22,591 bases of DNA from a virus. The DNA is taken from IMG/VR virus record IMGVR_UViG_3300045003_000069, positions 1 to 22,591 of that record; one strand, written 5' to 3'. The notes under the pieces are model-generated. The model was not told the DNA's origin and searched no databases. It saw only the letters and a list, made by a program, of their open reading frames with translations. Position numbers and translations under genes: made by a program. Shown one piece after another: positions 1,326-17,108 of the stretch; positions within the stretch are counted from its first letter, which is position 1, and each line of letters opens with the position of its first letter.

Positions 1326-4300
1326 GTGCCTGACCGCTCGTACATCATCGAGATTCTGCTCAGGGCGCGTGATGAGACAGCACGCGCTTTTGCGTCTGCG
1401 ATGGGTGAGCTTGAGGCGTACGACAAGGCAGTAGAGGAATCCAATAAGAAGCTCCTAGCGAGTCGCGCGGCTCATACTGCGTACAACAAGGCAGTAGATG
1501 AAGGAACTACTTCGATAAAGCAGAAGGATGCAGCCCTGAAGGAGCACGGGCTCACTTCACAAGATCAACTGCGTAAGGAGATCGAACTCGAAAAGGCTCA
1601 ACGAGCAGTAACACAATCGATACTCGCAGGCAATGAAGGAACAAAACAACACACACTGCTGCTCGGCGATCTCGTTCGCGCAGAGGAACGATATGCAGAA
1701 TCACTGAAGACAAATAAGAAATTCACCGATGACATCATCGCTAGTCGCATCGCCGAGACTAGGCACATCGCCGATCAAACGACTGCGATCGAGCATGAGA
1801 CGCGAGTAAACGAAGAGCGAGCACGCTCGCTTGGGCGCGTCTCGGAAGCCGCAGCACGCGCCGCCCAAATTGAGGCAGCGGAGCGCAAGAAGGCCAGCGA
1901 TGCGATTATCCGAGCCGACGAAGAGGCGACACGTCGCGTTGAACAGAATCGTCGAAATCTGTCTAGGTATCTCGAACAGGAACAGAATCGACTAGAGACG
2001 ATTGACGCAAAGGCAGCACGCGCTGAAGAGGCACGGATTGCAAAGCAGGAGCAAATTCTAAGACGAGCAGCGTCGCTTGCTCAAATCACAGAAGCGCCAG
2101 GACGACGGCGCACCGTTAGCGCACGTGCGACCGTAGCACGTGCCCAGCGAGGTCTTGGTGCAGCCGAACAGGAACTTATTCATGTCGGCGGACTCGCTCC
2201 AGAAGAGGCGGCGCAGCAAATTCAGGGCGTTAGACAGCAGGCGCAAGATGATCTCGGTCTCAATAAGTTCGATCAACTCAAGAACAAATTCAAGGATCTC
2301 GATGGAAGCGTAAAGGGATTTGACTCATCGATCCGTAATGCGTTCGGATTCGCACTCGTAACATTCATTCAGCCGGCGATGGCCTTGATGGTGGGTCTGG
2401 CAGGAGCCTTTGCGGCGGTTGGCTCTGCGGCGATCTCGGCGGGGGCAGCGATTGGCACGACGTTCCTCTCTGCGATGGTGCAGGGAATACCTGTAATGGG
2501 ACTTTTGACAGCCTCGATGCAGAGGTTGACGCAGGTATTCAGCTACGTTCAAGCAGCGGCGCAGTCGGTTCAGCAACGATTCATGGCGCAATATCAGACG
2601 GCCATCCAAAACCGTCTGGGAATAAATCAGGTAGCGATTGCAGCACACGGATTGTCTGACGCTCTGTATTCGCAACAGCAGGCTATTAGACAGGTCTCGA
2701 TAGCGCAATTCGGTCTCACACAGACACGTCAGCAAGCAGCGCGGCAGCTACAAGACCTGACGTTCCAAGAGCAGTCTGCTCGTCTCGCTGCAGAAGCATC
2801 CTCGTTATCTGTCGTAAACGCCCAGAAAGCTCTACGTCAGGCGATTGCAACAGGTGGAGATGTTCAGCAGGCGCAGCTTGATCTTCAGCAGGCGCAGCTA
2901 GGCCACACACAAGCCGTCACACAGGCACAGCGAGCGATTGCGGACGCTTCACAGGGTTCGATAGCACGTCAAGCAATCGCTCAACAAGTTTCGCAGGCGC
3001 AGGTAGCCGTCACACAGGCACAGCGAGCAGTGGTCGATGCTCAGTTCAGCGTGGCTCAGGCTCGTGCCGGCCTGGTGCAAGCGCAACAAGCCGCAACAGG
3101 ATTCAACGCATCTGTTGCGGCGCAACTGGCGTACATGCGATCGCAAATGTCGCGGACCGAGTTGGCATTGGCGAATATTTTGATGCCGCTGTTCAATCCG
3201 CAGAGCCCACTCAGGAGGGCTCTGCATACGCTCACTGATCAGATCGTTGCGGCATTCATACCGCTTGCATCGCGGCTCATCCAGATCTTCCAGAGGCGAG
3301 ACTTCTTTGGCGCGCTTTTGAATCTCGCTACACAGATAGGAAACGCCTTCAGAACTGTATTCGCGACACTCACGAGCAGTCAGGCAGTTCGAGCTTTCAT
3401 CGCTCTCATCAATGATGCGGCAAGGAATGTCGGTCCACTTGCAGGAATTGTCTCGGCGATGCTGCGTGGATTCGGTGCAATCGCTCAAGCAGCCGCACCT
3501 TTCGTTCACGATCTCCTGGTGACGGTTGAATCGCTGGCAAAGGCATTTGCTGCGTGGGCCACTTCGGTAAAGGGTCAGAATTGGCTCAAGCAGTTCTTCA
3601 CCGACGCCTTTGGGTCGCTCAAGGCATTCATGGATGTCGGGCTCGCGCTGGTTCAGTTGATTGCAGCAGTGGTAACGCAGGGCGGTGGCGCGCAGGCAGG
3701 CATTCGTCTTCTCGATGATTTCGCAAAGCGGATCGATCAAGTTACGAATTCGATCAACAACCACGGACGCGCATGGCAGATCCTTCAGCAGCTTTGGCAG
3801 TCGGCGGCTCCAGCACTCCATGCTGTAGGTGAGATCCTCGGGGCGATCGGAAGCGCCTTCTTGCAAATCGGTGGGACGCCTGAAGGCCGGCGTTCAATGC
3901 AAGCACTCGCCGATGTGATCGCGCACGTCCTCGTCCCGGCGTTTGTTCAATTCGCACTCATTATTGGTTTTGTCGTCAGCCAGATCACTCAGTTCCTACA
4001 GCACCATCCCGCGCTCATGTCGGCGCTCAGTGGAATTCTGGGTATCGTACTTACGCTGTCATTTGCAGTCAAAGGCATAAAACTCATCTTTGGACCGTTC
4101 GCTGCGGCGATTACGATCTTGAAGACAGTTGGTGGTCTGCTAGGTGGTGTGGCGCGTAGGCTTGGCGAAATCGGCGTGCTGGCGATTGGGCGTCTGTTCG
4201 GGTTGGAGGGTTTACCTGAGTACGAACGTTTGCTTGATCGCATAAAGGGCGCTGGTGGTCCAGCAGCGACTATGGAAACCGCTATGAAGCGAGGCGGTGA

Positions 4301-7300
4301 TTATGCAGCTAGCAGAATGGAGGAAGCGCTTCATGGCGTGCGTGGCGGCGGAAGACCGAACGGCGGTTCGATATCGCATGTGGTCGAAATCGCCGGTCAA
4401 CCGATTCGAGTCTTCGTCGTAAATTGGGAAGAGATTGCGGCAGGTAGGGGACTTGGAGGCGGTCCGCATGAAGTTCCTCCGGGTGAGCATGTGCCGGTCG
4501 AGCCACGGACGCCAGGGCCAATTCGTCGAGCGGTCTCTCGGGTTACGGCACCGATACGGCGCACTGTTACGAGAATCACCTCGCCGGTTCGTCGAGCCGC
4601 CGGTGCTGTGCTGGGACCGATTACACGTGGAGTTCAGCCGATTCGTCGTGCAGCAGCCACCGCAGCAGCCATCGCATCACTGTCGCCTGTAGGTCGCGCG
4701 CTAAGAGGGCTTGGTTCATTTGCTCGCGCGATTCCTCTACTTGATCTTGGATTCCTCGGATTTGGCGCGCTCGGTCCAAGCGCTGAAGGTCCAGGGCTTT
4801 TTGGACATCTTGCGACAGGAATTGAATCGATCGATCCGACTGGGCTGATACCCGGATTCCAGGGAATCGCACATTCGCTGTTCCACCCGCTCTTTCATGC
4901 AGTCGGCGGTGATCTCACTGCGCCCCGGCCGGAACAAACTGCATATAACCTTCAGCAGCGCCAAGGAATCCCACAGTCGTTCTCGTTCTCGCGAGCGCTG
5001 CGCGGTGAAAGTTCACAGCAGATCATCACGGAATGGGATCGCACACTGAAGCCGGTATTCGCTCATGCTACGACCAGCTTCCGGCAGTTGGGCAAGGATG
5101 TATCGACGAATATCTTGGATGTCATCAAAGATATTCCGAATAAATTCCGACAACCGTTCAAGGATGCGACGAGTCGAGCGACACCCGAGTTCGATTCATT
5201 CCATAAGAACGTCACAACGAAGATTTCGAATACGCAGGCCAACATCCTCGGTGCGATCAGAAACATCGCTCGAACTGTTGGAACTGGGACTAATCGTGGC
5301 CTTCAGACATTCACATCAAATATCGGAACTACGGTCACGACGGCTATCGACAACATCAATGCGGTCGTCTCCGGAGTTCACGATGGAATCAAATCGATCA
5401 ATACGCAGATGTCTAATTCGCTCAAGGCGATGGGCGTCACGTCGGTCACAAACATCACGACCGGAACGGTTCAGAAGGTATCTGCTGCGATCAAGAGCTT
5501 CCTGTATGTCGCCACAGCATTTGCTGGCGGTGGATTCGTAGGAAATATGGGTGAGCGAGGACGCGATGGGGTTCTTGCACTGCTTGGTCGGGGTGAAGCT
5601 GTGCTGAACTGGGGTCATCAGAAACTCGTCGAGCCTGCGCTGAACGCTTTCTACGGCTTTGGCCTGACGGATCTGTTCCAACGCACCGCTGGATCACATG
5701 CCGGACAGCAGAGCCAGGGAGGATATGCGACAGGAGGATATATCTATCCGTTCCCACGAGGGACGCTGATCGGCCGCTCGGATCAGGGCGTGGATGCGAA
5801 TATGCCGGTGGGTTCTCCGATTGGACCGATGGGTCCGGCAGTCGTCAAGGGCGTGATTCAGAATTGGTACAAGGGCCAGCCGTTTATCTGGTGGGAGCTT
5901 ACAGATGGCCCGCGCAAGGGCCAGTATGGCTATGTCGCGGAGCAGATTACGAATCTCGCTCCAGTCGGCGCGGTTCTCCAGCCAAATCAGGCAGTAGCCG
6001 CATATGCGCCCTCTGGTACAGGAATCGAATATGGGTGGGCTACTGCTAGCGGTTCGACACTGGCACGAGCGACGACAGGCTACACCGAAGGCCAAGTCAC
6101 GCCGGCCGGTGCCGATATGCATTCGTTTTTGCTCGGGCTCGCTCACGGTCAAATTCTTGGTGGTCTTTTCGGTGCTGCTGCGAATATCAGCCCGCCACTA
6201 GTAAAGGGCGCTGGACATCTTGCGGCGTTGGCCCAGAAGGTGCTTCAGCGAATCACCGATCAGGCAAACAACTACTTGAATCAAAAACAGCAGACATCAG
6301 GTGGGACAGGAAATGTCTCATCGCTATCTGGATTTGCCGCGAAGGGCACGTCTGCTGCTGCGAATCAGTCGCTTGGTCACAGGATGATGCGAGCTTTTGG
6401 ATATCCCGAATCCGAGTGGCCAGCCCTCCTTGCATTGTGGAATCAGGAATCGAGTTGGGAAGCAGGTCCATCATCTGTCAACCCCTCGTCTGGCGCGTAT
6501 GGAATTCCTCAAGCCAATCCCTCTGGTGGCCAGGGACACCCATATGCGCTCAATGATCCTGTCGCACAGATCAAGTGGGGACTTCAATACATCAAGAATC
6601 GATACGGCACGCCATCTGCCGCCGAAGCACACGAACTGTCCTATCATTGGTACAACCAGGGTGGGTACGCTGGAGGAAAGCCGGTTTCTGTTACCGCGCA
6701 TGTTGGGGAATGGATTCTCAACAAGTCGCAGCAGATGAAATTAGCGAGTCGTCTCGGGATGACCGTTGACAGCCTGAAGAAGTCGTTGGGCTTTTCAGGT
6801 GGACCGACTTCCTTCCAGGGAGGCGGCGAGATTGGCGACTATCGCACGGGCCGTTTCAATCGCGCTGGCACTTATACCGGACCGGATATCGCTGTCGATA
6901 CCGAAGCGTTCTACGCAGCAGCGCTGTCCATCTATACGCGCGCCCAGAGTCGAGTTATCAACAACATCACAGCCAAGGTGCGAGCTTCCAGTAGGAAATT
7001 CAACTCGGCGCTTGATCGGTTCATTGCGAACTACAACGTCGTTGGTGGCGATAGCGGTCTCTTCGCCTTAGCTGCGACAGCAGTTTCCGATTTCGTATCT
7101 AGGCAGCAGACAGCAGTCACGCTTGCAGCAGCCGGCGTACGCGAGATCGGACAGCGACTAAGACGCGGAACAGCACAGACAGCGCTACAAGCGGCAACCA
7201 CTGATCTACGTTCAACACAGCAGATCATCGCCCAGCTTGAACCGTTACAGCGTTCCGAAGTAGAGGCGCTCGCACAGGTGAATCGTCAGATCGCCGCTCT

Positions 7301-8822
7301 TGGACCACATCCTGAGCGCCACCATCTGAAGCAGTATCAGACGCTCCTGAGTGCTCGTGAAGATTTCATAAAGAAGATTCAGGATGCCGATTCGCAACTC
7401 GCATCCGCATACACCGATCTCTATACGAAACAGACAGCGCAATTCCAAGCCGAGGTCGATGCCAGGATGCGTAACCCCACGCTGCGCCTGAATCTCGCCC
7501 AATTGAATCAGCAGATCGCACAGGCATTTGGTCGTACAGGCCAGTTGCTAGGCCCGCGAGGTGCTGATCAGCAAGTGATAAATGCCCTTCAAGCGCAGCA
7601 GCAGATTCTCCAGAACGAGTATTTCCGTGCGGCATCCAGGGCACGACATGATCCACGTTGGCAGAAGACGGCTGACGATCTCCTGCAACAGCTTCAGGGA
7701 GTCATCGCAAGCGTCGCTCAAGCACAAGCGCAACAGCTTCAGGACGCCATTTCGGCAGCCGACACTCGTGCCCAGATACAGCAGTCTGCGATCGACATGA
7801 CAAACAGGTTGATTCAGGTCCAGGCTGGGCTAGGCGATCAAGTCGGAGCGGCAGCACGGCAGATTGATGTCTCGCGCCTTCATCAGCAACAGCTTGGCGA
7901 GCAGTTCCAGACGTATAACAACCTGCTCGGTCAGGCCCGAGCGCAGGGAAATGTCAGTGCCATCAACGACCTCACGCAGAAGATCGAAGATCTGACTGCT
8001 CAAATGGCCGAGGCGAATCTCCAGACGCAGCAGTTGATCACCGCATATCGGCAGCTTTCGATTTCGATTCTCCAGACTCAGACGCAGGCGACGAGTGGTT
8101 TCTTCTCAGCAGCAAATCAGATCGCGCAAACGCTGGGGGCTATCGCAGGAAATCAGAATCTTCCTGCTCTAATCGCGTATGCAAAGGAAGCTGGGGCTTC
8201 GCTCATCGACCAAGGCAAGAGCATCGTTGCGAACATCATGGCGGCGGTGAATGATCCGAATGCACCATTTGGCGCAAATCAGGCACAGGCAGGTGGGCTC
8301 CTGACGCAACTCGTGAATGCCTATCAGGGCGGCCCGCAGCAATTCGCGAATGTCCTTGCTGCGCTTGGTCCGGCGTTGGGTCAATTCGAAGCTGGGCTTC
8401 CTCAAGACCAGGCGACGCTTTTCCAAAATCTCGTTCAGGCGCTTATCGACAACACGACCTCGATCGTCAACAACACGCAGCAGCTTCAGCAGCTAAATGC
8501 GACGACGCTTCAGCAGCAGTTCACATCAAGCGCGTGGTCGATGTTCCGCGAGGCGATCTTCAACGGCCTGGGCGGGCTCCTGCCGAATTATGCGCTGGCA
8601 GTGCCTTCGATGGACGTGGGCGGCTATATTTCGCGTAGTGGGCTACTGTACGGCCATCAGGGCGAGACGATCGTGCCGGCGGGAGTCCAACGTGGTCCGG
8701 TTGGCGGAGGGAATTACGGCGACGTGAACGTTCATGTCACGAATCCAACAGAGGTGGCCGATCCGGTTCATCTCGGAAATGCGATCGCTTGGCGTCTGGC
8801 CCACGATCCGAATTCACGATAG
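1326..8822 (+). CDS. Tape measure protein with lytic-transglycosylase-like and M23-like domains
   Basis: At 2498 residues this is by far the largest gene. It sits where a siphovirus tape measure belongs. The start is GTG; the nearest ribosome binding site (GGAGGGG, about 1298) is distant, so coupling to the preceding gene is likely. Residues 1-310 are Glu/Ala/Arg coiled coil, about 339-400 hydrophobic, about 440-620 Gln/Ala-rich coiled coil with heptad repeats, and about 861-942 a second hydrophobic block. Four P-[IV]-R-R repeats lie at 1065-1108. Residues about 1474-1570 resemble an M23-peptidase fold, but the metal His appears replaced (DQGVD at 1486-1490) and the second motif reads YVAEQI, so it is probably inactive. 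Residues about 1682-1781 resemble a soluble lytic transglycosylase (ALWNQESSWE, candidate catalytic Glu1708; SGAYGIPQ; AQIKWGLQYI). The last 700 residues are mostly coiled coil. At roughly 0.15 nm per residue the tail would approach 370 nm. Confidence 0.93.
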   Translation: MPDRSYIIEILLRARDETARAFASAMGELEAYDKAVEESNKKLLASRAAHTAYNKAVDEGTTSIKQKDAALKEHGLTSQDQLRKEIELEKAQRAVTQSILAGNEGTKQHTLLLGDLVRAEERYAESLKTNKKFTDDIIASRIAETRHIADQTTAIEHETRVNEERARSLGRVSEAAARAAQIEAAERKKASDAIIRADEEATRRVEQNRRNLSRYLEQEQNRLETIDAKAARAEEARIAKQEQILRRAASLAQITEAPGRRRTVSARATVARAQRGLGAAEQELIHVGGLAPEEAAQQIQGVRQQAQDDLGLNKFDQLKNKFKDLDGSVKGFDSSIRNAFGFALVTFIQPAMALMVGLAGAFAAVGSAAISAGAAIGTTFLSAMVQGIPVMGLLTASMQRLTQVFSYVQAAAQSVQQRFMAQYQTAIQNRLGINQVAIAAHGLSDALYSQQQAIRQVSIAQFGLTQTRQQAARQLQDLTFQEQSARLAAEASSLSVVNAQKALRQAIATGGDVQQAQLDLQQAQLGHTQAVTQAQRAIADASQGSIARQAIAQQVSQAQVAVTQAQRAVVDAQFSVAQARAGLVQAQQAATGFNASVAAQLAYMRSQMSRTELALANILMPLFNPQSPLRRALHTLTDQIVAAFIPLASRLIQIFQRRDFFGALLNLATQIGNAFRTVFATLTSSQAVRAFIALINDAARNVGPLAGIVSAMLRGFGAIAQAAAPFVHDLLVTVESLAKAFAAWATSVKGQNWLKQFFTDAFGSLKAFMDVGLALVQLIAAVVTQGGGAQAGIRLLDDFAKRIDQVTNSINNHGRAWQILQQLWQSAAPALHAVGEILGAIGSAFLQIGGTPEGRRSMQALADVIAHVLVPAFVQFALIIGFVVSQITQFLQHHPALMSALSGILGIVLTLSFAVKGIKLIFGPFAAAITILKTVGGLLGGVARRLGEIGVLAIGRLFGLEGLPEYERLLDRIKGAGGPAATMETAMKRGGDYAASRMEEALHGVRGGGRPNGGSISHVVEIAGQPIRVFVVNWEEIAAGRGLGGGPHEVPPGEHVPVEPRTPGPIRRAVSRVTAPIRRTVTRITSPVRRAAGAVLGPITRGVQPIRRAAATAAAIASLSPVGRALRGLGSFARAIPLLDLGFLGFGALGPSAEGPGLFGHLATGIESIDPTGLIPGFQGIAHSLFHPLFHAVGGDLTAPRPEQTAYNLQQRQGIPQSFSFSRALRGESSQQIITEWDRTLKPVFAHATTSFRQLGKDVSTNILDVIKDIPNKFRQPFKDATSRATPEFDSFHKNVTTKISNTQANILGAIRNIARTVGTGTNRGLQTFTSNIGTTVTTAIDNINAVVSGVHDGIKSINTQMSNSLKAMGVTSVTNITTGTVQKVSAAIKSFLYVATAFAGGGFVGNMGERGRDGVLALLGRGEAVLNWGHQKLVEPALNAFYGFGLTDLFQRTAGSHAGQQSQGGYATGGYIYPFPRGTLIGRSDQGVDANMPVGSPIGPMGPAVVKGVIQNWYKGQPFIWWELTDGPRKGQYGYVAEQITNLAPVGAVLQPNQAVAAYAPSGTGIEYGWATASGSTLARATTGYTEGQVTPAGADMHSFLLGLAHGQILGGLFGAAANISPPLVKGAGHLAALAQKVLQRITDQANNYLNQKQQTSGGTGNVSSLSGFAAKGTSAAANQSLGHRMMRAFGYPESEWPALLALWNQESSWEAGPSSVNPSSGAYGIPQANPSGGQGHPYALNDPVAQIKWGLQYIKNRYGTPSAAEAHELSYHWYNQGGYAGGKPVSVTAHVGEWILNKSQQMKLASRLGMTVDSLKKSLGFSGGPTSFQGGGEIGDYRTGRFNRAGTYTGPDIAVDTEAFYAAALSIYTRAQSRVINNITAKVRASSRKFNSALDRFIANYNVVGGDSGLFALAATAVSDFVSRQQTAVTLAAAGVREIGQRLRRGTAQTALQAATTDLRSTQQIIAQLEPLQRSEVEALAQVNRQIAALGPHPERHHLKQYQTLLSAREDFIKKIQDADSQLASAYTDLYTKQTAQFQAEVDARMRNPTLRLNLAQLNQQIAQAFGRTGQLLGPRGADQQVINALQAQQQILQNEYFRAASRARHDPRWQKTADDLLQQLQGVIASVAQAQAQQLQDAISAADTRAQIQQSAIDMTNRLIQVQAGLGDQVGAAARQIDVSRLHQQQLGEQFQTYNNLLGQARAQGNVSAINDLTQKIEDLTAQMAEANLQTQQLITAYRQLSISILQTQTQATSGFFSAANQIAQTLGAIAGNQNLPALIAYAKEAGASLIDQGKSIVANIMAAVNDPNAPFGANQAQAGGLLTQLVNAYQGGPQQFANVLAALGPALGQFEAGLPQDQATLFQNLVQALIDNTTSIVNNTQQLQQLNATTLQQQFTSSAWSMFREAIFNGLGGLLPNYALAVPSMDVGGYISRSGLLYGHQGETIVPAGVQRGPVGGGNYGDVNVHVTNPTEVADPVHLGNAIAWRLAHDPNSR
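2863..3028 (+). repeat. Tandem and spaced repeats within the tape measure coiled coil
   Basis: A 16-base unit (TTCAGCAGGCGCAGCT) occurs at 2863-2878 and 2884-2899, exactly 21 bases (seven codons) apart, giving heptads QQAQLDL/QQAQLGH. A 24-base exact repeat occurs at 2912-2935 and 3005-3028, 93 bases (31 codons) apart, encoding AVTQAQRA twice. The multiples of three and the heptad period point to growth of the coiled coil by in-frame duplication. Confidence 0.8.
4518..4649 (+). repeat. Basic P-[IV]-R-R repeat segment in the tape measure protein
   Basis: Four copies of Pro-Ile/Val-Arg-Arg begin at residues 1065, 1076, 1087 and 1105 (bases 4518, 4551, 4584 and 4638), spaced 11, 11 and 18 residues. 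The interval is rich in Arg, Thr, Ser and Val and has few acidic residues, forming a local basic stretch between the second hydrophobic block and the M23-like domain. Its function is unknown; a DNA- or membrane-contacting segment is possible. Confidence 0.7.
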
Positions 8823-10763: not shown

Positions 10764-11888
10764 ATGCCAGAGTACGAATGGATTCTGTGCAAGTCACCCA
10801 GCTTCTCAGCGCCCTTTGCACCGCTTGAGAAGATCGGGACGTTGCACAACGCCAAGCAACGGCAGTTTGAGTTGGTCAAGAACCGCGCCGGTTCGGCCTC
10901 CTTTCAGATTCGTACGAACGACGATGCAGCGTACGAGATTCTTGATCAAGTGAATCTCAACGATGTGCGTGGCACAGTCAGAAAGTGCATTCGTATCAGG
11001 AGAAACAAGGTTGATCTATGGTCAGGGCCGATCTGGGGCATACAAGGCAGCCTGGATCAAGGCACGATCACGGTGAATTGCGTCGGATGGCTGGAGACAC
11101 TCCAGCATCAGATTCTCGAATCCACGCTCGACTATTCAAATTCCGGTAATGGCACGCCGACTGATCAAATCGCCTACGGGCTTCTGAACGCCGTCAACGC
11201 ACAGGACACGTTGCACCCTCTCTGGGTCCAGCAGGGTACAGCGAGTGGGGTGATGCCGATCAGGAATCGTTTCTACGTTCTCGGGCAGAATCTCGGCCAG
11301 GGGATTCAGGAGCTTTCGGATATCGAGGCCGGTGTCGATATCAGTGTTGACCCGGTGACGCGCGCTCTGAATCTAGCTGCATGGGATCTCTATAAGTCAA
11401 CGTCAGGTTGGTGGGGACAAGTTCGATCCAACATTAAGCTCGGATATCGTTGGGGACCGAACAACCTCAAAAATTTCTCATGGCAGGAAAGCGTCGATAA
11501 GATGACGAACAGGATCATAGTCGTGTCTCAGGGAGCGCCTATCGGAGCGCAAGATAATGCGTCGCTCGACGAATACGGTCGTTTTTCTGAATATGACACG
11601 ATCACTGACGCTAATCAGACTATCCTGCCGGCGTATGCCAACGCTGAACTAGCTGTGCGTTCGAGGCCGATCATCACGTACAACATCGTTCCTTTCCCGC
11701 GAGGTACAGCAAATTCACTACCGTCGCTGTTCGATGATTTTCAAATCGGCGACAAGATATATCTGACTGCGACCAAAGATGCGTTTCGAGTCCAGAATCA
11801 AGCGGTTCGCATATTTGGTGCGACGGTGCAACTCGACGATGTAGGAAATGAGACGGTCTCCAATCTCATGACGAGCCCTTCGACCTGA
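10764..11888 (+). CDS. Tail hub / minor tail protein (Gp37-like or Tal-like)
   Basis: The 374-residue protein starts immediately after the preceding stop (TAG ATG). Its layout follows phage hub proteins that come after Dit: a beta-rich N-terminus (QFELVKNRAGSASFQIRTND, IRIRRNKVDLWSGPIWGI, GTITVNCVGWLETLQHQI), a helical linker (GQNLGQGIQELSDIEAGVDI), and a C-terminal beta domain (FDDFQIGDKIYLTATKD, NQAVRIFGATVQLDDVGN). Actinophage proteins of the ReqiPepy6 Gp37-like family share this style. Hub proteins form the tail-tip platform through which the tape measure and DNA exit. No peptidase or lysozyme motif is visible here; the hydrolase-like domains are in the tape measure instead. Family membership is inferred from pattern and order. 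Confidence 0.62.
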   Translation: MPEYEWILCKSPSFSAPFAPLEKIGTLHNAKQRQFELVKNRAGSASFQIRTNDDAAYEILDQVNLNDVRGTVRKCIRIRRNKVDLWSGPIWGIQGSLDQGTITVNCVGWLETLQHQILESTLDYSNSGNGTPTDQIAYGLLNAVNAQDTLHPLWVQQGTASGVMPIRNRFYVLGQNLGQGIQELSDIEAGVDISVDPVTRALNLAAWDLYKSTSGWWGQVRSNIKLGYRWGPNNLKNFSWQESVDKMTNRIIVVSQGAPIGAQDNASLDEYGRFSEYDTITDANQTILPAYANAELAVRSRPIITYNIVPFPRGTANSLPSLFDDFQIGDKIYLTATKDAFRVQNQAVRIFGATVQLDDVGNETVSNLMTSPST

Positions 11889-12199
11889 TGCCCAATCCCG
11901 GCGGAAAGCCCCCGAGACAGGATTCAGATCAGACCATCCTGCGAGATCTCAGGAGCAGGATAACGGCGTTGGAGAGCAGCCTTCCAATGGTATCCGATCA
12001 AGGCGCGTCGGTGACGAGCGTGACGATCAACCACGGTCGCGGCCGTGTCGTCGGCGTTCAGGCATTCGATGCATCAGGGAACTTCGTATCCGTGACATAT
12101 CAATGCATCCTCCAGACGGATGCTGTTACAGGAGCGATCGTCTCCAACGCAGTAAGAATCGTCGGCGCTAGCGCGTTTCGGTATGTGCTGATCAGCTAG
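11888..12199 (+). CDS. Small tail-associated protein, unknown
   Basis: This 103-residue protein overlaps the previous stop by one base (TGATG), so it is translationally coupled to the tail hub gene. Residues 15-34 form a short heptad-like helix (TILRDLRSRITALESSL), probably an oligomerising coiled coil. The remainder is beta-rich (ASVTSVTINHGRGRVVGVQAF, VTYQCILQTDAVTGAIVSNA, FRYVLIS). That layout suits a trimeric tail spike, fibre base or small tip protein. I do not recognise a family. It is the last gene of the plus-strand tail block; its TAG shares the palindrome CTAG with the stop of the converging minus-strand gene. Confidence 0.7.
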   Translation: MPNPGGKPPRQDSDQTILRDLRSRITALESSLPMVSDQGASVTSVTINHGRGRVVGVQAFDASGNFVSVTYQCILQTDAVTGAIVSNAVRIVGASAFRYVLIS

Positions 12200-13371
12200 G
12201 TCAGCTTTGCCCGCTCGCCGATATTCTTCTCAATCGACGCTCGAAACAACTCGCCCCGGCTGGTGATTTCCAGGTAAATCGGGAATTCATATCCACTGCG
12301 ATGCAATGCATCCATCGGAATTGCTCGCCCGGTATTCAGAATGCGTCCTTCGCCTGTTTCTATGGCATTTGCGAACGCTACTAGATGTTTACTTCGGAGT
12401 CGATGTGGGATTAGGACGGTAATTGGCTTACCGATGAGGCCACCGCGATCGTATCCGAACATCTTTTCGGCTTCTGGAGAGGCGTATTGGATTGTCCCAG
12501 AGTGGTCTGCATGGAGATCGGCCAGTTTTAGTGGGTCCGTCTGCTGCTTCCGATAGAAGGCATTGACTACCAGAAGGAAATAGATCGCGGCCGGCACTGC
12601 CAGTATGTCGATTATCAGTGTGATTACGGTGTGGTGATACGCACCACGGGCCACGTAATAAGCAAACATCCCGTGCGTGATTGCACAAGTCGGAAATATG
12701 AATGCCAGGCAGACTGCGCTCAAGCTCCAACTTCCAGTGCTAAAGAATGACAACACGGATGTCCTGAGCAGGAGCCATCCAATCGCCGTGTATAGAAGCA
12801 TCAACAGGAGATTTGGCACCTCGATTGCCTGGAAATGATGTGCTGCTGGACCGAGTGCGATGATCACGATCAGCGTCGTCACGTATGCGCTGAAGGAGGC
12901 TGTGATCGAATGCTGCACCCAGAAGTTTCGTCGCAAGCGAAAGTCGATAGGTCCATGACGTTTGCCATGTAATGCGAGCGTTCCGTTCAATCGCATGAGG
13001 AACCAAGCAATCCCTGGAGGAAATCCAACAGCGATTGCAATCGCCTCCAGCAAACCACCATGATCACCAGAATACATACCCAACGATATCGGGCTCGTGA
13101 TGTCTGTCAGATGAAAGAGTGAGAACGACGCAAGAAGATGGGCGGAGAACGGCACAAAAACCAACTGCGCGAGTCCATGTGCCAGGTAGTGTGGACCGAA
13201 CGTGAAGGACATGCATATCCATGCACATCCAAAGTGCCAAGAGGATGCCAAGCGCCCTCGCTCGGATCTGTAGACAGACCACCGCAGGATCATCTCGTCG
13301 ATCGTCATCACGCCGTATTGGCAATAGATGATCCCCAAGACGATCATCGCGATTGCTGAAATACCCGTCAT
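12196..13371 (-). CDS. Multi-pass membrane protein with C-terminal PAS sensor domain
   Basis: This 391-residue protein has about seven or eight hydrophobic segments (roughly residues 3-22, 46-66, 68-86, 104-127, 155-175, 185-203, 214-236 and 248-271), then a cytoplasmic PAS domain at about 281-373. PAS hallmarks are DHSGTIQYASPEAEKMFGY, GLIGKPITVLIPHRLRSKHL, a TGEGRILNTGRAIPMDALH stretch and GYEFPIYLEI. PAS folds sense ligands, redox state or light, or mediate protein contacts. No histidine kinase, GGDEF, EAL or other output domain follows, so any signal must pass to a partner. The membrane part is rich in His and aromatics (GPHYLAHG, THGMFAYYV). Its ATG overlaps the stop of the coiled-coil gene upstream (ATGA), implying coupled translation. 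A sensor of this kind is unusual in phage; host origin is plausible. Domain calls are good, function unknown. Confidence 0.8.
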   Translation of the reverse strand: MTGISAIAMIVLGIIYCQYGVMTIDEMILRWSVYRSERGRLASSWHFGCAWICMSFTFGPHYLAHGLAQLVFVPFSAHLLASFSLFHLTDITSPISLGMYSGDHGGLLEAIAIAVGFPPGIAWFLMRLNGTLALHGKRHGPIDFRLRRNFWVQHSITASFSAYVTTLIVIIALGPAAHHFQAIEVPNLLLMLLYTAIGWLLLRTSVLSFFSTGSWSLSAVCLAFIFPTCAITHGMFAYYVARGAYHHTVITLIIDILAVPAAIYFLLVVNAFYRKQQTDPLKLADLHADHSGTIQYASPEAEKMFGYDRGGLIGKPITVLIPHRLRSKHLVAFANAIETGEGRILNTGRAIPMDALHRSGYEFPIYLEITSRGELFRASIEKNIGERAKLT

Positions 13372-14051
13372 GATCCGTTTTCCTTTCTTGCGGCGGGGCC
13401 GATATCTCGTTCGCGTCTGCTTTGCTTGCGCCGCTCCTTCGAACCTGCCGGTGGCCCTTGATCGAGTTTTCTGCGATCTTCGCCGCGAATTGCTCCCACG
13501 TGTTGTTGGAACGCTGTGATGATGGATGGATCGCCTTCGCCTGGTCCAAGGAGGCGATCTATCTTGTGCTTGTATTGGAGGTGCTGATCGCGGAAATCCG
13601 AATATTCGCGTCGTAGCTTCTCCAATTCGGTGCGAAGGTTGCTCCGCTCCTGCATCGTGTTCTGGAGTTCACGTCGAAGCCCCGTCATCTGATCTTCCAA
13701 GGCCACCATTTCCTTGCGGAGACCAGAGATGATTGAGTTCAGGCGCTCTATTTCTTCCAGAAGATGACCGCGCTCGCGACGCATTGCATCGCGTTCTTCG
13801 CGATATTCTTGTTTTTGGGCCTCGCGCTCTTGCTGAAGCTCGTCGGTCAATCGCGCCCAAGCATCGATATGAGTGCGTTCTCGCTCGACATCTGCCTGGT
13901 TGAGCTTCGTTTCCTCTTCTGATTTCTCCCGTTTTTCTTCCAGGCGTTGCTTGCGTGATTCAGACCGTTTTTGAATCCAGACCCCAATGAATGTGCTGAT
14001 GAAACCGATCAGCCCCACGATGACTGTTGCGAGGGGCGCTGATATATGCAT
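13368..14051 (-). CDS. Membrane-anchored coiled-coil protein
   Basis: The 227-residue protein has one N-terminal transmembrane segment (about residues 5-26, VIVGLIGFISTFIGVW), then a charged, nearly unbroken coiled coil to about residue 165 (HLLEEIERLNSIISGLRKEM; QERSNLRTELEKLRREY), a short linker, and an Arg/Lys-rich tail (about 190-227). It directly follows the zinc-knuckle gene (TGA ATG) and overlaps the PAS gene by four bases, so the three form one operon. With positive charge after the anchor, the coil probably lies in the cytoplasm. It could be the partner that receives the PAS protein's signal. A lysis-type role such as spanin or holin partner is the main alternative, but the long coil and basic tail are not typical of those. 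Confidence 0.75.
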   Translation of the reverse strand: MHISAPLATVIVGLIGFISTFIGVWIQKRSESRKQRLEEKREKSEEETKLNQADVERERTHIDAWARLTDELQQEREAQKQEYREERDAMRRERGHLLEEIERLNSIISGLRKEMVALEDQMTGLRRELQNTMQERSNLRTELEKLRREYSDFRDQHLQYKHKIDRLLGPGEGDPSIITAFQQHVGAIRGEDRRKLDQGPPAGSKERRKQSRRERDIGPAARKENGS

Positions 14052-14405
14052 TCAATCGTCCTCTGAGGCGAGGTTTTCGTGGATGTAGCAATACGGATTC
14101 GGGGGCACGCGAGGCTCGTAGCACCCGACGTGGCAGCACGTCGGAGTACGAGGTGATTTGATTCCGGTTCCCGAGCCTCGATCAGCATTCGTGAATCCAT
14201 GCCCGCTGGAGATCTCACGGTCGCTGTTATCAGATCGACGCAGGAACAGATTCCCGCCATCAATCTCTTCTTTGATCTGAAGGATTTCCTTCAGATGCTC
14301 GGCGCAGAGATAGTGATCAGGAGCACGGCGCTCTCTGCAATAAGGGTTTCCACATTGACCCTTGCCGCGCGTTGAGACTACTGAGGACTTCTTTGGACGA
14401 CCCAT
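14052..14405 (-). CDS. Double zinc-knuckle protein, candidate DNA-binding regulator
   Basis: This 117-residue protein has two matching Cys/His clusters: Cys18, Cys23, Cys34, His37, and Cys90/91, Cys95, Cys106, His109. Both contain C-x10-C-x2-H (CRERRAPDHYLCAEH and CYEPRVPPNPYCYIH), so each probably binds one zinc. The N-terminus reads MGRPKKSS, close to an AT-hook core (GRPKK). It is the first gene of the minus-strand operon. Its ATG is six bases after a TAGGAT box on the minus strand, an arrangement that would produce a leaderless transcript. A regulator of this operon or of the divergent helicase gene is a reasonable inference. A very similar zinc spacing occurs in the 16683-17108 protein. 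Confidence 0.72.
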   Translation of the reverse strand: MGRPKKSSVVSTRGKGQCGNPYCRERRAPDHYLCAEHLKEILQIKEEIDGGNLFLRRSDNSDREISSGHGFTNADRGSGTGIKSPRTPTCCHVGCYEPRVPPNPYCYIHENLASEDD

Positions 14406-14413
14406 GCTATGAT
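14405..14413 (+). promoter_or_regulatory. Extended -10 promoter (TGCTATGAT) for the helicase operon
   Basis: TGC-TATGAT matches an extended -10 element (TGn plus TATAAT-like hexamer). The ten bases TGCTATGATC recur exactly at 16668-16677, before another gene start. No good -35 box is visible at normal spacing, which extended -10 promoters can tolerate. Transcription would begin near 14420, so the most upstream ATG (14409) would not be in the message; TTG 14418 or ATG 14427 would be used. Confidence 0.55.
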
Positions 14414-14417
14414 CCTA
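14412..14417 (-). promoter_or_regulatory. Divergent -10 box (TAGGAT) for the minus-strand operon
   Basis: On the minus strand TAGGAT is followed by six bases (CATAGC) and then the ATG of the zinc-knuckle gene. That is the same six-base spacing as TATGAT to GTG at 16671-16685. It overlaps the plus-strand -10 box, so the two promoters cannot be occupied at once. No clear -35 is visible. Confidence 0.4.
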
Positions 14418-14426
14418 TTGAGCGAG

Positions 14427-15836
14427 ATGATCATTCGAGTTGACCACAAGCTCCGGATCGCCCTATCCGAGCTTCCTCACGATGTACGCAATCAGATTAC
14501 CGAAGCGCTGTCGATCCCTAACGTCGCGCGTCAGAAAGCGATGGAGCAGAACCTCTGGGGCTGGCAGCAGATGCCAAAGACGATCCCGCTCTATGAGGAA
14601 GATCGAGCGGCGAATGATCTCCTGATGCCGCGAGGCTTTGGGTTCGATCTGATCGAGGGCCTGACGGATCTGGGAATTGAATTCGAAGTGCGCGATCGAC
14701 GAACACACGATCCGTTGCCGGCGAAGGGCCAGGAAATTCGTCTGCGCCCGTGGCAGGAAAAAGCGCTCTCTGCCCTTTTGGACGCCCAGGAGGGCATCTG
14801 GAAGGCCCCAGCGGGCTCAGGCAAGACCGTGGGCGTCCTAGAGGCCATCAGGCGGGTTTCAGGGCGCTCGATCGTGATCGTGAACACCAAGGACATCCTG
14901 TGGCAGTGGCAGGAGCGCGCAGTGCAGTTCCTTGGCAGTACCTATCCTGTGGGTCAGATCGGGGATAATGTCTTCTACATATCCCCATACATGACCATAG
15001 CTACAGCACAGACATTGCATAGACGTTTCGAAGCATTGGAGCAGGACGGCTTCTTCGATCTCTTCACGTTCATGTGCCTCGATGAGTGCCACCACGCAAC
15101 GGCCGAGACGTATAACCGAGTCGTGAACCGATTTTCTGCTCGCTTCCGAATCGGGGTCTCCGCAACTCCTGACAAGACGGGCGATTTCGCGCTTGCGACC
15201 AATGTCCTTGGACCAATTATTCATGAGACAAGGCCCCAGGATGTGACTTCATTGATGAAGCCTGAAGTCCTGAAGATCCCTACGACATTTGAATTTGGCT
15301 ACAAGCGAGCAAGCGGACGAATACCATCGAACTATTCGAAGATGCTGACAGCATTGGTCAAGGATCACGATCGAAATAATCTGATTGCGCGACTTATCAA
15401 ATCTCAAGACGGATCTCACAGCCTGGTCGTCTCGAAGCGTCTGGAGCATCTCGATATTCTTGCGGAGAAGGTCTCACGTCTTGGGTATCAGGGCAGGATT
15501 CTTAGGCTGACGGGCTCTGAATCATCTGAAGAGCGGCAAAGCGTCATCGAGACGGCGACCACCGAGCCATCAGTGATCTTCTCTACGCTTGCCGATGAAG
15601 CACTCGACATTCCGCGTCTAGATCGCCTGTTCCTGGTGTTTCCGCAGCGCAATCCAGGTTTGATCACGCAGCAGGTAGGGCGTGTGGAGCGCCAGCACCC
15701 AGATAAGCGCGACGCCAAGATTTTCGACTTCTGCGATCTAAGAGTTGGCCCTTGTGAGGCTCAATGGCGCGTGCGCCGGCTTGAAGTCTACGAGCCTCGC
15801 GGGTATCAGATCACGATGCTGAGGATCGGTCAGTGA
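14427..15836 (+). CDS. SF2 (DEAD/DEAH-like, UvsW/XPB-type) DNA/RNA helicase
   Basis: Superfamily 2 helicase motifs appear in order (numbered from the longest start, 14409): motif I WKAPAGSGKT with Lys139, motif II LDECHH (Asp225), motif III SATPDK (from 251), then in the second RecA domain IFSTLADEALDIP and motif VI QVGRVERQHP (from 422). A short domain precedes the ATPase core. Phage relatives unwind branched DNA or R-loops during recombination-dependent replication. I prefer ATG 14427 (or TTG 14418) because ATG 14409 lies inside the likely -10 box; with 14409 the protein is 475 residues, with 14427 it is 469. The stop overlaps the RNase HI start (GTGA). It is first in a plus-strand operon whose promoter lies almost on top of the minus-strand operon start. 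Confidence 0.88.
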   Translation: MIIRVDHKLRIALSELPHDVRNQITEALSIPNVARQKAMEQNLWGWQQMPKTIPLYEEDRAANDLLMPRGFGFDLIEGLTDLGIEFEVRDRRTHDPLPAKGQEIRLRPWQEKALSALLDAQEGIWKAPAGSGKTVGVLEAIRRVSGRSIVIVNTKDILWQWQERAVQFLGSTYPVGQIGDNVFYISPYMTIATAQTLHRRFEALEQDGFFDLFTFMCLDECHHATAETYNRVVNRFSARFRIGVSATPDKTGDFALATNVLGPIIHETRPQDVTSLMKPEVLKIPTTFEFGYKRASGRIPSNYSKMLTALVKDHDRNNLIARLIKSQDGSHSLVVSKRLEHLDILAEKVSRLGYQGRILRLTGSESSEERQSVIETATTEPSVIFSTLADEALDIPRLDRLFLVFPQRNPGLITQQVGRVERQHPDKRDAKIFDFCDLRVGPCEAQWRVRRLEVYEPRGYQITMLRIGQ

Positions 15837-16682: not shown

Positions 16683-17108
16683 GTGGGCAATCTGCCGATC
16701 CGGAAATGCGAAGCGAGGACGGCCACCGGAAAGCAATGCCGTGGCTTTCCGCGCAAGGGGAGTCAGTTCTGCTCGATCCACGCGCCCGAGCTAAACGCCG
16801 AGCACATCTACATTCGCGAGGCTGCGGAACTTCTGAACCGCCGTCTCGGGACTGTTCGGAAATGGGATCGGAACGGTATCCTTCCCGAACACCTTCGGCC
16901 GATGCGTGGACCCCGAGGCTGGCGTTATTGGACGCCCGGACAGATCGAGATGATCAAGGAGTGGATGCGCGAGACCGAATTCCACGCCGGCCGTGGCCTG
17001 CCCCACTGGAATCCGACAGAAAAGGAACTCGATAAAGCGATAAACGCCATGCGACGTGTCCACAATTACAAAAAACCACGACTGGAAGAGATCGAATTCA
17101 AGCCATGA
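16683..17108 (+). CDS. Zinc-finger plus MerR-like winged-helix DNA-binding protein
   Basis: This 141-residue protein starts with GTG. Residues 9-33 form a zinc-binding segment (Cys9, Cys19, Cys30, His33, with CRGFPRKGSQFCSIH). Residues about 42-97 look like a MerR/excisionase-type winged helix: IYIREAAELLNRRLGTVRKW, a turn (GILPEHLRP), a basic wing (RGPRGWRYWTPGQ), then IEMIKEWM. The C-terminal 40 residues are basic and helical. It is probably a site-specific regulator or excisionase-like protein, and as first gene after the structured region it is well placed to bind the nearby repeats. Its C-x10-C-x2-H spacing matches the minus-strand zinc-knuckle protein. It overlaps the next gene by four bases (ATGA). 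Targets are unknown. Confidence 0.75.
   Translation: MGNLPIRKCEARTATGKQCRGFPRKGSQFCSIHAPELNAEHIYIREAAELLNRRLGTVRKWDRNGILPEHLRPMRGPRGWRYWTPGQIEMIKEWMRETEFHAGRGLPHWNPTEKELDKAINAMRRVHNYKKPRLEEIEFKP

What the first reader, a model, noticed from the sequence alone, without database searches (positions are those of the whole stretch)
12196..13371. Phage-encoded 7-8 TM receptor with a C-terminal PAS domain and no output domain
A multi-pass membrane protein ending in a PAS domain, without kinase, cyclase or effector, is unusual in a phage genome. Sitting antisense between tail and replication modules, with its own promoter, it could let the phage sense redox, light, membrane energy or a small molecule, or interfere with host signalling.
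Basis: partly seen in the sequence, partly recalled or inferred. Interest (0 to 1): 0.82.

Follow-up and report, generated by a model that had tools for sequence, protein, structure and literature searches.

The report
Phage seven-helix receptor with heme-type PAS
A virus of bacteria carries an intact gene for a seven-helix membrane sensor of an unnamed family, fused to a PAS domain that most resembles bacterial oxygen sensors and lacking any enzyme part of its own, so it may listen to, or interfere with, the host's gas or c-di-GMP signalling.

Summary
Window 12196-13371 (-) is an intact 391-aa gene in an uncultivated phage contig (IMG/VR). It encodes about seven TM helices (N-out, C-in inferred) and one C-terminal PAS domain, with no output domain. 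The PAS is specifically of the FixL/DosP oxygen-sensor kind: every PDB sequence hit at E<0.01 and the top 34 Foldseek hits are heme PAS, and the FixL heme ligand (H329) and distal Arg (R349) are kept. Heme binding itself is inferred.

The TM part has no Pfam, PHROG or NCBIfam family and no relative found in phages, plasmids or IMG/VR. It does have relatives in 23 of 272 species of one pseudomonadotal genus (probably Bradyrhizobium). There it is a stand-alone 7TM protein whose gene overlaps an upstream soluble GGDEF-EAL gene by 4 bp in all 22 complete loci. It is a 3+1+3 TM repeat with conserved histidines in TM2 and TM6. It works like an MHYT domain but is not one.

A related phage (L077) keeps the flanking order but lacks the gene, so it is variable cargo. 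"Own promoter" and light sensing are not supported. Most likely function: a membrane gas or redox sensor acting in trans on host PAS or c-di-GMP proteins.

The parts
12196..13371 (-). 391-aa 7TM-PAS protein gene
   Evidence: ORF; Pfam PAS above cut-off; hydropathy; homology of the TM part to bacterial 7TM proteins
12517..13371 (-). residues 1-285: duplicated (3+1+3) transmembrane domain with conserved GPHxLxHG (residues 59-66), TGxWSLS (213-218), CAxxH (229-233) and D..xPAxIYFL (255-266)
   Evidence: tblastn E 6.4e-10 to G293; BLASTP 6e-13 over 93 aa; alignments A2 and A5; internal repeat
12199..12552 (-). residues 274-391: PAS domain of FixL/DosP type; heme-ligand position H329, distal Arg position R349
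13368..14051 (-). 227-aa protein, one N-terminal TM helix plus long coiled coil; same transcription unit (ATGA overlap with the 7TM-PAS gene); spanin- or holin-like by weak PHROG matches
14052..14405 (-). 117-aa Cys/His-rich protein, first gene of the antisense block; conserved at the same place in the related phage L077 (35% identity)
11888..12199 (+). last tail-module gene, convergent, sharing CTAG with the 7TM-PAS stop
14409..15836 (+). ResIII/SF2 helicase opening the replication module, divergent from the antisense block
   Evidence: Pfam ResIII 1.3e-22; 52% identical to L077

Best explanation
It is a phage-carried accessory ('cargo') sensor. The duplicated seven-helix domain, with histidines near the outer face of TM2 and TM6, takes a membrane or periplasmic input (by analogy with MHYT a metal-bound diatomic gas, or membrane redox state). 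It passes this to a cytoplasmic FixL/DosP-type PAS that probably binds heme and reports O2, NO, CO or redox. Having no enzyme of its own, the protein most likely acts in trans: its PAS dimerises or docks with a host PAS-containing kinase or c-di-GMP enzyme and shifts that enzyme's output during infection. Shown here: intact ORF, PAS fold of the FixL/DosP subfamily, conserved heme-pocket positions, homology of the TM part to bacterial 7TM proteins encoded with GGDEF-EAL enzymes, absence of an output domain, and absence of the gene from a related phage. Inferred: topology, heme or metal binding, the trans partner, and the effect on the host.
For: PAS above curated cut-offs. All PDB sequence hits at E<0.01 are heme PAS: FixL, DosP/DOS and 10jx. 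The top 34 PDB fold hits are heme PAS. Against BjFixL, H200->H329, I215->I344, I216->L345, R220->R349, L236->L367 and I238->I369 (alignment with positions; the role of H200 and the distal pocket residues from PMC10765370). TM homology: 6.4e-10 in one of 299 genomes, then 23 of 272 genomes of that genus; invariant GPHxLxHG, WSLS, C..xH, D....PA..YFL. All 22 complete bacterial loci have a 4-bp overlap with an upstream EAL gene; the one read in full is a 523-aa GGDEF-EAL protein that shows no TM stretch to the eye. The related phage L077 keeps collar, Cys-rich gene, helicase and DnaB but lacks the 7TM-PAS and coiled-coil genes, which suggests optional cargo. MHYT-type 7TM domains are known standalone or fused to GGDEF, EAL and PAS, and one senses CO via copper (PMC11347149).
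Against: No second viral copy was found, so nothing shows selection on the architecture. The His/Arg pair also occurs in PAS domains whose heme content is unknown (A4 rows). In the bacterial relatives the TM protein has no PAS, and the phage has no GGDEF-EAL gene in this 22.6-kb fragment. No trans partner was identified. The TM part could not be modelled in 3D (single-sequence pLDDT 41).
Confidence: 0.5

Rival explanations
1. Lysis- or exclusion-module membrane protein: with its coiled-coil neighbour it belongs to the lysis/accessory locus between tail and replication genes. The 7TM part acts on the membrane (lysis timing or superinfection exclusion), and the PAS is a regulatory add-on that reports energy or redox state.
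For: Position after the tail genes. The neighbour 13368-14051 matches 'hol-like' and Rz-like spanin PHROGs weakly (8.7e-7 and 1.6e-5). In L077 the same slot holds + strand ORFs with apparent TM segments.
Against: Coiled coils give many spurious hits. The L077 ORFs have no family match. No endolysin lies in the block. The TM family's relatives sit with c-di-GMP enzymes, not with lysis genes.
Confidence: 0.2
2. A passive fragment of a host sensor (7TM-PAS-kinase or cyclase) picked up by the phage, truncated at the PAS and without function.
For: Found in one virus only; absent from the relative L077; ends exactly where a PAS-to-output linker would begin.
Against: Intact 391-aa frame with phage-like codon positions (GC1-3 0.54/0.44/0.58) and codon usage (correlation 0.79, within the 0.68-0.92 range of the other genes). 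Tight ATGA and CTAG packing. FixL key residues kept. No remnant of an output domain seen downstream.
Confidence: 0.15
3. Partner-by-neighbour: the output is the co-transcribed coiled-coil membrane protein (13368-14051), so the two genes form a two-component phage receptor that works without host proteins.
For: ATGA overlap (translational coupling). Both genes are absent from L077 while the first gene of the block is kept.
Against: No DNA-binding or enzymatic domain in the coiled-coil protein; co-occurrence is seen in one genome only.
Confidence: 0.15

Closest known systems
Stand-alone 7TM protein encoded with a GGDEF-EAL enzyme in one pseudomonadotal genus (e.g. L030:1429-2256, L032:1276-2112); no Pfam family
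   Same: Homologous TM domain: same 3+1+3 repeat, GPHxLxHG, WSLS, C..xH and D....PA..YFL motifs
   Different: Bacterial proteins have no PAS and overlap a GGDEF-EAL gene; the phage protein carries a PAS, has an insert of about 30 residues before TM3, and has no enzyme neighbour
FixL / DosP heme-PAS oxygen sensors
   Same: PAS subfamily by sequence and predicted fold; heme His, distal Arg and hydrophobic pocket positions kept
   Different: No kinase or EAL output; unrelated TM part; heme binding untested
MHYT domain sensors (Pfam PF03707; CoxC, MucR, NbdA, CdgB)
   Same: About seven TM helices, conserved His at outer ends of TM helices, associated with PAS/GGDEF/EAL, alone or fused (PMC11347149)
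   Different: No MHYT motif, no Pfam match, no profile similarity (hhalign probability 0.3%); 3+1+3 repeat with motif in TM2 and TM6 instead of three motifs in TM2, TM4 and TM6
VqmA of vibriophage VP882 (phage-encoded PAS receptor)
   Same: Phage-encoded PAS-based sensor (PMC8284805)
   Different: VqmA is a cytoplasmic PAS-HTH transcription factor; here the PAS is membrane-tethered and has no DNA-binding domain
Phage and giant-virus PAS or histidine-kinase proteins (e.g. Agrobacterium phage Atu_ph07 A0A2L0UZB1; uncultured Caudovirales A0A6J5L941)
   Same: Viral PAS folds, Foldseek E 1.7e-7 to 1e-3
   Different: Best matches are annotated as kinases, response regulators or GGDEF proteins, or as short PAS proteins; none is described as a 7TM-PAS without output

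Membership tests
PAS domain superfamily | Score above curated cut-off and PAS fold | tested here: met
   PF13426 35.1 vs 27 bits, PF00989 32.7 vs 22.6; TIGR00229 37.7 vs 22.9; AF2 plus Foldseek E 1e-7
FixL/DosP-type heme PAS | Proximal His, distal Arg and hydrophobic pocket residues of BjFixL | tested here: met
   H329, I344, L345, R349, L367, I369 aligned to H200, I215, I216, R220, L236, I238; one conservative change
FixL/DosP-type heme PAS | Binds heme | not testable with these tools
   needs purified protein and a spectrum
FixL (as a sensor kinase) or DosP (as a phosphodiesterase) | HisKA/HATPase or GGDEF-EAL output | tested here: not met
   no such domain; FixL equivalog 34 vs 850 bits, DosP 21.7 vs 857
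MHYT domain (PF03707) | three MHYT motifs and profile match | tested here: not met
   no Pfam match for the phage or bacterial 7TM proteins; hhalign probability 0.3%
Bacterial 7TM family found here | sequence homology and motif set of the TM domain | tested here: met
Bacterial 7TM family found here | gene overlaps an upstream GGDEF-EAL gene | tested here: not met
   upstream gene in the phage is a coiled-coil membrane protein; 22/22 complete bacterial loci have EAL
HisKA_7TM / 7TMR-DISM and other Pfam 7TM input domains | Pfam match | tested here: not met
   no TM-domain match up to E 1
Microbial rhodopsin / LOV photoreceptor | Lys in TM7 for retinal; Cys in PAS for flavin adduct | tested here: not met
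   TM 250-268 ITLIIDILAVPAAIYFLLV has no Lys; residues 281-391 have no Cys (sequence)
VqmA-type phage receptor | PAS plus HTH DNA-binding domain | tested here: not met
   PAS ends at residue 391, no HTH

The most novel reading that the evidence does not exclude
The phage encodes a two-input gas sensor (outer-face histidine site in a new 7TM family plus a cytoplasmic heme PAS) that has shed its enzyme and works only by coupling to host PAS or c-di-GMP proteins: an output-less, host-plugging receptor, and a way for a phage to tie infection or host lifestyle to oxygen or NO.
Probability: 0.25. Interest if true: 0.82.

Novelty: new variant of a known kind. Interest (0 to 1): 0.57.

Why it matters
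Phage-encoded sensors studied so far mostly carry their own output (VqmA, histidine kinases). A membrane receptor with a heme-type PAS and no output would show that phages can plug into host gas or c-di-GMP signalling by protein contact alone. Independently, the work exposes a 7TM sensory family without a Pfam entry, encoded with GGDEF-EAL enzymes in about 8% of the species of one genus; it is a testable counterpart to MHYT.

Tried and rejected
MHYT membership: no motif, no Pfam or profile match. Light sensing: no retinal Lys, no LOV Cys. Host contamination or misassembly: CTAG and ATGA overlaps, typical codon use, same flanks in L077. Weak phage hits of the TM part in Enterococcus phages (E 0.3) are chance over 83 residues. 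L038 and L039 look like MAPEG-type proteins sharing only xWSLxF; L078 and L079 are chance matches with stops. Five IMG/VR scans with the protein, its PAS alignment and TM alignments found no relative; the method needs near-exact 7-9-residue stretches, so distant viral copies may be missed. AF2 of the full protein from a single sequence failed (pLDDT 41). Bacterial 7TM sequences were not submitted to AF2 because the tool's stated list of allowed sources does not include genome-search loci. Bacteroidota and wider Pseudomonadota samples gave no further 7TM relatives. PADLOC matches of the neighbour are coiled-coil noise.

Full report
WHAT IS THERE. The window is a 22,591-base IMG/VR virus record. 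It carries a tail module (tape measure 1326-8822, collar-domain protein, Dit, tail proteins) and a replication module (ResIII helicase, RNase H, DnaB, primase, a weakly gp32-like protein, dNMP kinase, PHP domain of DNA polymerase III). Between them lie three antisense genes: a Cys/His-rich 117-aa protein (14052-14405), a 227-aa one-TM coiled-coil protein (13368-14051) and the 391-aa protein in question (12196-13371). The last two overlap by ATGA. The 391-aa gene shares CTAG with the stop of the convergent tail gene, and an AAGGAAA Shine-Dalgarno-like stretch precedes its ATG. Codon-position GC and codon usage are in the range of the other phage genes. This is an intact phage gene, not a seam of host DNA. 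The 'own promoter' is not supported: sigma-70-like sites are at chance and none precedes the block.

PAS DOMAIN. Residues 288-368 pass the Pfam and NCBIfam cut-offs. An AF2 model built with five bacterial PAS relatives has pLDDT 70 and pTM 0.62. Its first 34 PDB matches are all heme PAS domains: FixL, DosP/EcDOS and FG214. Sequence search alone gives the same answer: the twelve PDB chains up to E 0.002, and all fourteen below 0.01, are FixL, DosP/DOS or 10jx, which Foldseek lists as a heme-binding PAS. In the ungapped part of the alignment the heme ligand His200 of BjFixL falls on H329 and Arg220 on R349. The distal pocket residues I215, I216, L236 and I238 fall on I344, L345, L367 and I369 (roles of His200 and the hydrophobic residues from PMC10765370; the BjFixL numbering of the other residues and the role of Arg220 are from my own knowledge of the FixL literature). 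Caution: four of the five bacterial PAS rows used also keep an Arg near that position and three keep the His, so this is a prediction of heme binding, not proof. The domain stops at the position (NIGERAKLT) where the DIT motif and output linker of sensor kinases would begin, and nothing resembling an output domain is seen in the antisense frames beyond.

MEMBRANE DOMAIN. Residues 1-280 match no Pfam, PHROG, NCBIfam or PADLOC family, no phage or plasmid record, no PDB chain and no IMG/VR contig within the limits of the scan. A sample of 299 Pseudomonadota genomes gave one true relative (E 6.4e-10, 35% over 91 residues; BLASTP 6e-13). The genus of that genome holds it in 23 of 272 species. The relatives are about 275-aa stand-alone 7TM proteins. 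Between phage and bacteria the motifs GPHxLxHG, WSLS, C..xH, D....PA..YFL.VV are invariant, and the first lies outside the region that scored in BLAST, so it is independent support. The bacterial proteins show an internal repeat (N half against C half: 51-70 versus shuffles of 27-29 +/- 5, 0-2 of 500 shuffles reaching it; self-hhalign E 4.5e-4), giving a 3+1+3 TM plan with a histidine at the end of TM2 and of TM6. The phage copy shows the repeat weakly (4 of 500). With basic loops at 25-44 and 126-155 taken as cytoplasmic, the phage protein has N out and C in with the PAS in the cytoplasm; hydrophobic 70-88 is then part of an outer-loop insert absent from the bacterial proteins. This is inference, because AF2 failed on the full protein without an alignment.

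WHAT THE RELATIVES SAY ABOUT FUNCTION. In all 22 complete bacterial loci the 7TM gene overlaps by exactly 4 bp an upstream gene with the EAL signature. Pfam calls EAL 6.7e-75 and GGDEF 2.4e-19 in the L030 copy. The fully read partner is 523 aa and I see no TM stretch in it. So the 7TM protein is probably the membrane input of a c-di-GMP enzyme, acting in trans. MHYT is the closest known parallel: seven TM helices, histidines at the outer ends of TM helices, alone or fused to GGDEF, EAL and PAS, and shown in CoxC to sense CO through copper (PMC11347149). The two are not homologous by our tests. The best PAS match in genomes is, as it happens, an MHYT-PAS-kinase (L003).

CARGO STATUS. The only related phage found, L077 (44-kb contig), has 52% identical helicase, 41% DnaB, a collar domain and the Cys-rich antisense gene in the same order. 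It has neither the coiled-coil nor the 7TM-PAS gene; short + strand ORFs with apparent TM segments fill the slot. The 7TM-PAS plus coiled-coil pair therefore looks like variable cargo at an accessory locus.

MECHANISM. Shown: intact gene, PAS fold of the FixL/DosP subfamily, heme-pocket positions, TM homology, no output domain, cargo pattern. Inferred: the 7TM part takes an outer-face input, the PAS binds heme, and the signal reaches host proteins by PAS-PAS contact or by displacing a host 7TM protein from its GGDEF-EAL partner. I give this 0.5. A lysis or exclusion role (0.2), an inert fragment (0.15) and a self-contained pair with the coiled-coil neighbour (0.15) remain.

NOVELTY. Phage PAS proteins are known: VqmA of VP882 (PMC8284805), and PAS or kinase proteins in the BFVD search. 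What is new is the combination of a TM family without a Pfam entry with a heme-type PAS and no output, in a phage. I rate it a new variant of a known kind. The main weakness is that it rests on a single viral genome.

Noticed in passing
L030:1429-3503, L031, L032, L040-L061, L075:2260-4655: An undescribed (no Pfam) 7TM protein encoded with a 4-bp overlap after a GGDEF-EAL gene in about 8% of species of one genus; a candidate MHYT-like c-di-GMP sensor family.
   Followed up: partly
14052-14405 and L077:5667-5969: Cys/His-rich small protein, antisense and divergent from the ResIII helicase, conserved in position and sequence (35%) between two distantly related phages; no family.
   Followed up: partly
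16683-17108: 141-aa protein with a C/H-rich N-terminus followed by a MerR-like HTH (weak Pfam matches, below cut-off).
   Followed up: partly
1326-8822: 2498-aa tape measure protein with an embedded transglycosylase region (phrog_12661, 5.7e-16, residues 1697-1776).
   Followed up: partly
L077:8811-9257: YkuD-type L,D-transpeptidase domain (Pfam 1e-24) encoded in the related phage, downstream of its helicase.
   Followed up: no
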